Source: a bacterium (GTDB lineage Bacteria; Hinthialibacterota; Hinthialibacteria; OLB16). From it: 40,110 nucleotides of DNA. Where the stretch lies: positions 1-40,110 of the forward strand of contig JAJVIK010000008.1 in assembly GCA_022072055.1 (NCBI GenBank). Reading direction: 5' to 3'. The translations under genes were made by a program, and so were the position numbers. Position 1 is the first letter of the stretch, and every line of letters begins with the position of its first letter. The notes beneath the pieces were generated by a model. That model saw only the letters and a program-made list of their open reading frames with translations. It did no database searches and was not told where the DNA came from. Shown here in pieces: positions 1-3,356 of this stretch.

Positions 1-1293
1 CGCGCCCGCGCCTTCGGTCCCCACTCCCACGATGTCCACGGGTCGCGGTTTCCCATCCAGATCGGTGGTCGCCGAGGTGATTGTTCCGGAGTCGATGCAA
101 GGCGAGTTTGGCAAGAGTCGGTAATCGCCCACGTCGGGATTGACGAACACCGGGTCCGCGTCAGTGTTGCCGGGGCCGGTGTAGGGGTGAGAAAGGCAAG
201 AGTATTCAATCTGAACGTTATCGGATGGTGTTTCGATGCCATCTCCCGTGAAGATAGAGTTTGACATTTCGACATGTGCGTTCGATGCTCCGATTTCAGT
301 TGGAATGAAGAAGCCAGGGTGTGAGAAAAGGTTTCTGGAAACTGTACTATTCCAAAACTCCGCAGCCCCTCCATCAAGGAGTAACCCCGCACCCCACCCT
401 GCTTGACTTGTCCCCGCATCCACGTCCGTTCGAATCTTGTTGTCAACGATAAGGCAGTTTACAAATCGGATGTCACTTTCACCCGCGGAGAAAACGCCTC
501 CGCCAGAATGGTCCCTGGAAAGGGCGAGCTGATTCCTGTCAATTCGGCATCTTCGAAAGGCTATCGTCGAATCGCTGATCCAAGCGCCGCCTCCCTCCCC
601 ACCCGATCCCCATGGGTTTCCCCCGGTGGCAATGTTCTCCGAGATAGTGCAGTCCTCGATGACCCCTGAAGACTGGCGAATATAGATTCCTCCACCACGT
701 CCGTCTCCATCAAGGGCGATATTGGTCGTAACTCGGCAGTTTCGGACCACCATCGAGCAATTATCGTAAAACAGGCCACCCCCTCTTTCAGCGACACCCC
801 CCTCGATGGTAAATCCATCAAGGATGGTATCATCGGCCCCAATAACCACGTGGAACCTCTCTGCTCCAAGGGCGCCAAGTGCTTGGAGACCAAACCACCA
901 GTGGCTGTATAAAATGGTCCTGATGACGCTTGTTGTTCCTGCCCGGATCACAGTCTCATTAGCCACGGGATCACGCAAGGAAAACTCGCCGGGGCTTTCT
1001 TGACCGGAAAATCCCCCGTATACGGCAACCCCAGTAACTAATGCTATCGATTCGTTATAGACGCCCTGACGCACCCAGATCTGATCTCCTGATGTCGCAT
1101 GAGAAAGACCGAGTGTGACTGTGGTGTAGGCACTGGTCCAATCGGTTCCATTAGAGGAATCCCCGTCAGGCGAGACGAAAATTGTGGCTCCCCAACTTCC
1201 TGCATCAAGGAAGATGGAAACCGCCACGATGACCGTGTATAGGACCGCCATGGGTAAGGTGCCATTCCGATCAGCCGCTCCGGAGGTTCTCAT
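1..1293 (-). CDS. Exported right-handed parallel beta-helix protein, 3' end beyond the left edge
   Basis: The reading frame is open for 431 codons from ATG 1293 to the window edge. The start has a good ribosome site (GGGAGGA, 6 bases upstream) and lies only 14 bases after the stop of the propeller gene, so the two are probably one operon. The N-terminus carries a hydrophobic signal segment (about residues 14-36). A DUF1565-like opening follows (FVSPDGDSSNGTDW, then SGDQIWVRQGVYNES). At least five coils then begin with GGG-type turns (GGGLFYDN, GGGIYIRQ, GGGAWISD, GGGVFSAG, GAGLLLDG) and alternate with C-x-I/V-x-x-N strands, as in pectate-lyase-like folds. The visible end reads SPCIDSGT, then DLDGKPRPVDIVG, which matches the choice-of-anchor Q motif that usually precedes an IGAYE sequence and a sorting tail. 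A surface-exposed or secreted role is likely. Substrate and partner are unknown. Confidence 0.85.
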   Translation of the reverse strand, partial: MRTSGAADRNGTLPMAVLYTVIVAVSIFLDAGSWGATIFVSPDGDSSNGTDWTSAYTTVTLGLSHATSGDQIWVRQGVYNESIALVTGVAVYGGFSGQESPGEFSLRDPVANETVIRAGTTSVIRTILYSHWWFGLQALGALGAERFHVVIGADDTILDGFTIEGGVAERGGGLFYDNCSMVVRNCRVTTNIALDGDGRGGGIYIRQSSGVIEDCTISENIATGGNPWGSGGEGGGAWISDSTIAFRRCRIDRNQLALSRDHSGGGVFSAGESDIRFVNCLIVDNKIRTDVDAGTSQAGWGAGLLLDGGAAEFWNSTVSRNLFSHPGFFIPTEIGASNAHVEMSNSIFTGDGIETPSDNVQIEYSCLSHPYTGPGNTDADPVFVNPDVGDYRLLPNSPCIDSGTITSATTDLDGKPRPVDIVGVGTEGAGA

Positions 1294-1307: not shown

Positions 1308-3270
1308 TTAATCCTCTCTCCTGAATGAAAGCCGGTTGATTCCCCCGACGGAACCAGCGAAGGAGTACCAGAGGTAATAAAGGTTCCCATCCGGTCCCTG
1401 CTGGAGTTCATAATTCATGCCGGGTTGTTCGGAATCCCACCAGATTCTTTGGGAATCGTTCAGGAGGAGGGGGGCACTTGAAAATTGGTCATCCGGGACT
1501 CGTCCAATTGTGCCATGGACAAAATCAAGGAATACGAGATCGTCTTCATAGTCTGACGGAAAGAAGCCACCCGTAATGAATGCGGGCCCCCCAACACTAC
1601 CCGAACCCGATGGACGCAGATAATACACGGTGGGAGGAGTCAGATTCGCGAAAGGGACATAGGGGAAACTCGGACGTTCGAAGAGATCCCCTCCGTAATT
1701 CTCGGGGTCGCAACCTGAATTGCATCCCGTATACATCTGGTAACCCGGTGTCGGCCAAGGAGTCGGTTGAGCGGAATTGCCCTCAACTCGAGGGAATCCG
1801 AAGTTCTCATAGTCACTAATATCGGGCCCCCCGGAAAAAGACAGGTCAACGCGATCAATCTCTTCAAAACCGCGTTCCTCCACGCCCCCGACGTTCGCAA
1901 TCCACGCTTCGATGATGGCACCCGTGTTTGGATCGGGGCGTAGGGCGAAGGTATATGGGTTTCGAAAACCTGAGGCGACGATTTCCGCTTTCGGAAGGCG
2001 CTGGCTGTATGAAGCGGGTGTGGGTGTGCCGGCGGGAACGGCTGTTGGTGTGGCGGTCAACCAACCCGTGAAGGGATTATCGGATGGAATCTCCAGATTT
2101 CCGTTGGAAGCAATCTTGTAGCGTAGAAGCTTGCCGGGATAGACACGGACATCCTGGGGGCGTCCGCTCATATATCCAGCGTTTCTTTCATGGTCAATAC
2201 AGCCTGTTGATAGAAGGAGGTAGTCGTCAGAACCATCCGAGTAGGATCTCAGGCACCCTCCAGTGTGGTCAACCTCTTCGAAAACGGGTGTAAAGACTGG
2301 GGTTGGGGTTGTGTTACCCGCATAAACATCAGGTCCCCCACTTACCGGTGCGGGAGTGGCAATTGGTGTCAGTTCCGCGTTGACCTCAAACCTGTAGATC
2401 TTGTTGACCCAAGTCTCCACGTTGGGTCGATACGGGTCATTGGGGAAAAGTGTGGGTGTGTTGCTCGTGCCGAACACATAGACAAAGCGCTTCGGAGAAA
2501 CCGCATCATCGAAGTCGGGATGACAAGCGATTCCCAGGAGTCCGTGTTGACCGGCCGGAACTGATATTAGCTGCGTGAGGTCCGCAATGGGATCCTTCTT
2601 CAGGGTACCATCATCTTCGATAACTCTCACCTTTCGATTGGTGCGCTCGGTCACCAACATGGCATTCCCCATGCCCGGGATGAATGTGAAATGGTTCGGA
2701 TGGTAGAGCGGTGTCGCCATCGCCTCCGGGGAGTCCCACCGCTCCTGGATAAACCCCACCGGACGATTCTCCTCCTTGGTGCAAGCGATCAGGAGGGAAC
2801 CATCGTTGAGCCCGCCACCGGTGGTTTTGAGCTCCATCAGGGAACTGGAGTCCTTGGTGACCTTAAGTCGGTTTGTAACCCCGGAATAGGTTCCGAAATT
2901 GGCGGATTCCACGAGGGAACCGGCCAGGACCAAGTCGAATCGATCGGTGGTGTTGTTCTGGTAAACAGCGGCTAATTGAGTGCCACCGGTGTCCTTCGCC
3001 TGCCACACCACGCTGCCCGACACTGCGTAGGTTGAGAGATGGTTGGCCACGGTCTTGTTCTCATGGACCTCGCCTTCGACAATCAGGTGGCCGTTCTCGT
3101 CCAGGGCGATAATGTACTCATCAAGTGCGCCGGGCTTCCGAAGGAACCAAGCGTAGTCGAGCGTCTCGGTGCAGACCCCAAACGCACCCCCCCCCCATGC
3201 ACACAAGTAGGCATACCAACGCGGGGTTCCTTCCGAGAGACTGCTTGGTTCTGGAACCATTTCGCTTCAC
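1308..3270 (-). CDS. Exported glucose/sorbosone dehydrogenase-like beta-propeller protein, frameshifted at its signal peptide by a G10 tract
   Basis: The intact frame runs from 3260 to 1308 (650 codons). It carries soluble PQQ sugar dehydrogenase (GSDH) motifs: GQHGLLGIACHPDFD, an EVDHTGG segment holding the family's catalytic-type His, and GFRNPYTFALRPD. Three loops contain Thr/Pro-rich insertions (TPTPVFTP, TATPTAVPAGTPTP, QPTPWPTP), so the protein is longer than typical family members. The ATG at 3260 has no signal peptide and no ribosome site. Ten bases upstream, GTG 3270 sits 8 bases behind AGGAGG and encodes a basic N-terminus followed by a hydrophobic stretch (ALVCLLVCMGGG), a convincing signal peptide. 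That frame joins the propeller only if the G10 run at 3187-3196 is one base shorter or two longer. The gene is therefore either phase-variable or carries a real or sequencing indel. Cofactor and substrate are not deducible. Confidence 0.8.
3187..3196 (-). repeat. G10 homopolymer near the 5' end of the propeller gene
   Basis: Ten C on the plus strand (G10 in the coding sense) lie about 75 bases after the GTG start. The tract decides whether the signal peptide and the GSDH domain are in one frame. Nine G would join them; ten, as sequenced, do not. It is the longest single-base run noticed in the window. Confidence 0.9.
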
Positions 3271-3326
3271 CCGCCTAACCTCCTGATACACCGTCCTGGA
3301 ATGCAGTGCGAGATAGCCAATGGAAA

Positions 3327-3356
3327 AGAATAGCTGACTGAGCGAAAGAGTGTCAA
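3327..3356 (-). promoter_or_regulatory. Sigma-70-type promoter for the propeller/beta-helix operon
   Basis: On the minus strand a perfect -35 TTGACA (3356-3351) is followed after 18 bases by TATTCT (3332-3327). It points at the GTG start at 3270, leaving a leader of about 50 bases that ends in AGGAGG. It supports 3270 rather than 3260 as the true start region. Confidence 0.65.

What the first reader, a model, noticed from the sequence alone, without database searches (positions are those of the whole stretch)
3187..3270. G10 tract separates a good signal peptide from its propeller domain
GTG 3270 has promoter, AGGAGG and a signal peptide but runs out of frame at G10. The GSDH frame lacks all three. 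One base fewer joins them. This is the classic layout of a phase-variable surface gene, or else an assembly indel.
Basis: partly seen in the sequence, partly recalled or inferred. Interest (0 to 1): 0.65.

Follow-up and report, generated by a model that had tools for sequence, protein, structure and literature searches.

The report
Poly-G switch candidate in secreted protein
A run of ten Gs knocks a bacterial secreted-protein gene out of frame just after its export signal, while a sister gene in the same genome carries the same start with nine Gs and reads correctly, which fits a slippage on/off switch but does not prove one.

Summary
Window 3187-3196 (minus strand) is G10. GTG 3270, with AGGAGG 8 nt upstream, a 10/12 promoter match and a signal peptide, runs out of frame at the tract and stops after 49 codons. 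The PF07995-like frame is otherwise open for about 620 codons.

The new evidence is a paralog on another contig of the same assembly (G000:C19). Its 5' end matches window 3288-3001 except for 3 substitutions and the tract, which is G9 there. With G9 the signal peptide runs in frame through a 650-residue protein. So the in-frame architecture exists, and tract length differs between two recently homogenised copies.

Seven pairs of contig ends share exactly 127 bp, the mark of a short-read k=127 graph. G10 and G9 can each be tied to locus-specific flanks within one 127-mer, so a consensus error is unlikely but not excluded.

No homologue was found in the other 13 held genomes of the class, and there are no reads, so reversible switching is untested. 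My best reading is a poly-G contingency locus sampled OFF, in one of two paralogs that exchange sequence. The main rival is a recent, fixed frameshift in a redundant copy. This would be a new member of a known kind.

The parts
3187..3196 (-). G10 tract, 75 nt into the GTG 3270 reading frame
3327..3356 (-). promoter-like site TTGACA-18-TATTCT, outside the cassette shared with C19
3279..3284 (-). AGGAGG Shine-Dalgarno-like site
   Evidence: spacing 8 nt to GTG 3270, 18 nt to ATG 3260
3121..3270 (-). GTG frame as assembled: signal peptide, out of frame at the tract, 49 codons and stop
1308..3260 (-). open GSDH-like frame (650 codons from ATG 3260; PF07995 match at residues 186-263)
3001..3288 (-). 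5' cassette almost identical to the C19 paralog (3 substitutions and G10/G9)
1..1293 (-). downstream beta-helix ORF, cut by the contig end; its last 183 bases held recur twice in C19

Best explanation
The G10 is a poly-G contingency tract at the end of the signal peptide of a secreted GSDH-like protein, sampled in the OFF state. SHOWN: with 10 G the start with the good ribosome site and export signal runs into a stop after 49 codons; a paralog in the same assembly with an almost identical 5' cassette has 9 G and is in frame over 650 residues; the bodies of the two genes are close to saturation at synonymous sites while the cassette is not, so the cassette was recently copied between them. INFERRED: slipped-strand mispairing moves the tract between 9 and 10 G, turning synthesis and export of this copy on and off; the two GSDH genes and the beta-helix genes with near-identical 3' ends belong to one array of secreted or surface proteins that exchange their ends.
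For: G9 twin in frame. Only 3 substitutions besides the tract in 288 bp, against pS 0.85 in the body. Tract pure and inside the 5' end of the ORF. Signal peptide only in the GTG frame. The k=127 contig-end overlaps tie each tract length to its own locus. In a meningococcal reporter G10 to G9 is the fastest wild-type switch (1.2x10^-7), and MutL loss makes no difference at G10-G13 (PMC4085013, section 17).
Against: No read-level or population variation at this locus. MutS1 and MutL are present, so rates may be modest. No other tract of 9 or more G was flagged as breaking a frame: 0 of 39, but 27 of the 39 could not be judged, so there is no sign of a genome-wide phasome. No orthologue with a tract in relatives. 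A duplicate gene is also free to decay.
Confidence: 0.5

Rival explanations
1. A recent, effectively one-way frameshift in a redundant copy: the paralog does the job, and the window copy has just begun to decay.
For: An intact paralog exists; one frameshift and no other disabling change in the frame is what a very young pseudogene looks like; mismatch repair is intact.
Against: A frameshift in a pure G10 is among the easiest mutations to reverse (PMC4085013). The promoter, SD and signal peptide are all still in place.
Confidence: 0.3
2. Assembly or sequencing indel: the true tract is G9 at both loci.
For: Homopolymers are the usual place for indels; this is a short-read draft of 32 contigs. 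No reads could be seen.
Against: With equal tracts the two copies would share 161 bp, more than k=127, and would merge into one graph node with one tract length; as assembled they share at most 101 bp. Illumina indels are reported mainly above 14 bp (PMC8808543, passage). All 12 of 39 long tracts that have coding sequence on both sides keep one frame.
Confidence: 0.12
3. The gene is expressed despite G10: by transcriptional or ribosomal slippage on the G run, or from ATG 3260 as a form without a signal peptide, so that tract length would choose exported or internal protein.
For: ATG 3260 opens the GSDH frame directly; G runs are slippery in principle (recalled).
Against: ATG 3260 is 18 nt from the SD and its product lacks a signal peptide. 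Nothing here tests slippage.
Confidence: 0.08

Closest known systems
Translational poly-G contingency loci, such as meningococcal hmbR/hpuA and Campylobacter poly-G genes
   Same: A pure G tract of 9-10 inside the 5' part of the coding sequence; a change of one base moves a secreted or surface protein in or out of frame (PMC3786947 abstract in listing; PMC4085013).
   Different: No switching seen here; mismatch repair present; one tract rather than a genome-wide set; the two lengths are seen in two paralogs, not in isolates.
GSDH (PF07995) / soluble PQQ glucose dehydrogenase
   Same: Sequence match above Pfam's cut-off in both paralogs; weak profile match to soluble quinoprotein glucose dehydrogenase, E 4e-5.
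   Different: In the window protein only positions 2-69 of 332 of the Pfam profile are matched; an extra N-terminal region and Thr/Pro-rich stretches; enzyme activity unknown.

Membership tests
Poly-G phase-variable gene | Pure mononucleotide tract long enough to slip, inside the 5' coding part | tested here: met
   G10, 75 nt after GTG 3270
Poly-G phase-variable gene | One-unit change joins or breaks an otherwise intact ORF | tested here: met
   The G9 paralog is in frame over 650 residues; the window frame is open on both sides of the tract
Poly-G phase-variable gene | Tract length varies between isolates or reads of one locus | not testable with these tools
   No reads and no same-genus genome; variation seen only between paralogs
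Poly-G phase-variable gene | Reversible switching of expression | not testable with these tools
   Needs reads over time or a reporter
Poly-G phase-variable gene | Product is at the surface or secreted | tested here: inconclusive
   Signal-peptide-like N-terminus by hydropathy and charge only
Decaying pseudogene | Further disabling changes in the frame | tested here: not met
   Frame open from 3260 to 1308
GSDH (PF07995) | Profile match over the curated cut-off | tested here: met
   44.8 bits against 25, but profile positions 2-69 of 332 only; paralog 36.6 bits, 3-168 of 332
GSDH (PF07995) | Six-bladed propeller fold with PQQ and calcium ligands (recalled) | tested here: inconclusive
   Single-sequence fold failed, mean pLDDT 33.5; ligand residues not checked

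The most novel reading that the evidence does not exclude
In this uncultured lineage an array of secreted GSDH-like and beta-helix proteins diversifies by two coupled means. Gene ends are homogenised between paralogs while bodies diverge, and a poly-G tract carried inside the exchanged signal-peptide cassette sets each copy ON (G9) or OFF (G10). Exchange of the cassette would then also reset the switch of the recipient.
Probability: 0.2. Interest if true: 0.6.

Novelty: new member of a known kind. Interest (0 to 1): 0.42.

Why it matters
To my knowledge (recalled) poly-G contingency genes are known mostly from host-associated pathogens. A case in a lineage with few relatives and intact mismatch repair, with a built-in paralog control, would widen that range. 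It also shows that one short-read draft genome can separate a real tract-length difference from an assembly indel when a near-identical paralog is present.

Tried and rejected
Orthologues: only G000 itself matched among 61 genomes and among the 14 of the class, G000 included. GTDB contig scan: one weak Thermus composti hit, 25% identity. A viral-contig scan for the G9 cassette motif found nothing. Fold prediction of the 622-residue part was unusable (mean pLDDT 33.5), so no fold search was run. That lost mismatch repair makes tracts unstable was rejected: mutS1 and mutL both pass their cut-offs. A genome full of poly-G switches is not supported: 0 of 39 long tracts were flagged as a frame change; 12 kept frame and 27 could not be judged, the window's own tract among the 27. 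My reading of the ORF upstream of the C19 paralog as a fibre-like protein found no Pfam support.

Full report
OBSERVATION. On the minus strand the window reads GTG (3270) ... GTGTGCAT-G10-TGCGTT, the tract being 3196-3187. It is the only run of 8 or more G/C in the window. AGGAGG lies 8 nt before GTG 3270. A promoter-like site (10 of 12 matches) lies at 3356-3327, against 0.1 expected in the stretch scanned. The GTG frame has a signal-peptide-like N-terminus (net charge +5, then a 12-residue stretch of hydropathy 2.37) and ends after 49 codons. The frame that carries the PF07995 match (44.8 bits, cut-off 25) is open from ATG 3260 to 1308. It lacks a good signal peptide, and its ATG stands 18 nt from the SD.

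THE PARALOG. The genome (G000, 5.86 Mb, 32 contigs) has one further copy, on contig C19, 62% identical. Its DNA is nearly identical to the window over 3288-3001: three substitutions and one base of the tract, which is G9 there. With G9 the same GTG start reads MKRNGSRTKQSLGRNPALVCLLVCMGGGAFGVCTETLDYAWF... through 650 residues. Beyond window base 3001 the genes fall to pS 0.85 and pN 0.28, so the cassette was copied between the loci long after the bodies parted. The 12 bases just upstream (TCCAGGACGGTG, window 3300-3289) recur in C19 at the end of the upstream gene, followed there by 13 extra bases. This suggests, as inference, that a C19-like locus was the donor. The window's promoter-like site lies outside the shared stretch.

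IS G10 REAL? I compared 54 contig ends. Seven pairs share exactly 127 bp from their very ends and several others 123-126 bp, as expected of a de Bruijn assembly at k=127 from short reads (inference). Between the copies the longest exact shared block is 101 bp; with equal G counts it would be 161 bp. One 127-mer (3289-3163) holds a window-specific base together with the whole tract, and the C19 copy can be tied to G9 in the same way. The two lengths are therefore locus-specific in the graph. This is an argument from assembly logic, not from reads. Illumina indels are reported especially for tracts above 14 bp (PMC8808543, passages). Genome-wide there are 39 runs of 9 or more. A codon-score test found 12 with coding sequence on both sides, all 12 in one frame, and 27 that could not be judged, the window's own tract among them because only 75 coding bases precede it. 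By ORF span 33 of 39 lie in an ORF, though some ORF starts are doubtful.

HOW IT MAY WORK. In a meningococcal reporter with the tract 118 nt into the gene, G10 to G9 was the fastest wild-type switch (1.2x10^-7) and G8 to G9 was 2.4x10^-8; for G10-G13 loss of MutL made no difference (PMC4085013, section 17 read in full). The same paper's introduction cites an insertion bias at 8-9 G and a deletion bias at 10-11 G in Campylobacter (passage). In meningococci, homopolymers of 8 or more were predominantly variable in four or five of five resequenced genomes (PMC5084427, passages). With 3 substitutions in 288 bp and a recalled rate near 10^-10 per site per generation, the copies have been apart for roughly 5x10^7 generations per lineage, enough for several tract changes at 10^-7. 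This rough inference makes a tract near equilibrium plausible; it does not show that switching is selected. mutS1 and mutL are present.

SURROUNDINGS. Downstream of the window gene is a beta-helix ORF cut by the contig end. Its 183-bp 3' stretch recurs in two C19 genes at 96 and 93%. The end of C19 (127773) is the 3' tail of such a gene, identical over 194 and 183 bp to the tails of the two others. With three such bodies and three such tails held, C5:1 and C19:127773 are probably neighbours, which would put both GSDH copies in one array (inference). The pattern is conserved gene ends and diverged bodies. A DDE_3 transposase ORF lies between the two C19 beta-helix genes.

LIMITS. No reads, no same-genus genome, and no match outside G000 in 61 genomes or in the class. 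Literature was seen as listings and passages, with one section in full; I make no claim that such a case is absent from print. The fold prediction was unusable.

VERDICT. A well-formed poly-G phase-variation candidate with an internal G9 control; probably real sequence; switching unproven. Best reading 0.5, recent fixed frameshift 0.3, assembly indel 0.12, still expressed by slippage or the alternative start 0.08.

Noticed in passing
window 1-183; L004 128-310 and 2922-3104: Three beta-helix genes share a near-identical 3' stretch (93-96%) while their bodies differ; contig ends C5:1 and C19:127773 probably adjoin through it.
   Followed up: partly
L004 1415-2509: DDE_3 transposase ORF between two C19 beta-helix genes of the array.
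   Followed up: no
G000:C7:211473-211560 (L053): Cluster of four long G/C runs, one of 38 bases, within a Gly-rich reading frame.
   Followed up: no
G000:C1:499719 (L040): A second G10 in a lipoprotein-like signal region (LLGCGGGD), in frame as assembled: another possible slippage site.
   Followed up: no
window 3420 to about 5660: The upstream membrane-protein ORF (glycosyltransferase-like, my reading) ends in a CBM60-type module (31.5 bits, cut-off 28.2).
   Followed up: no
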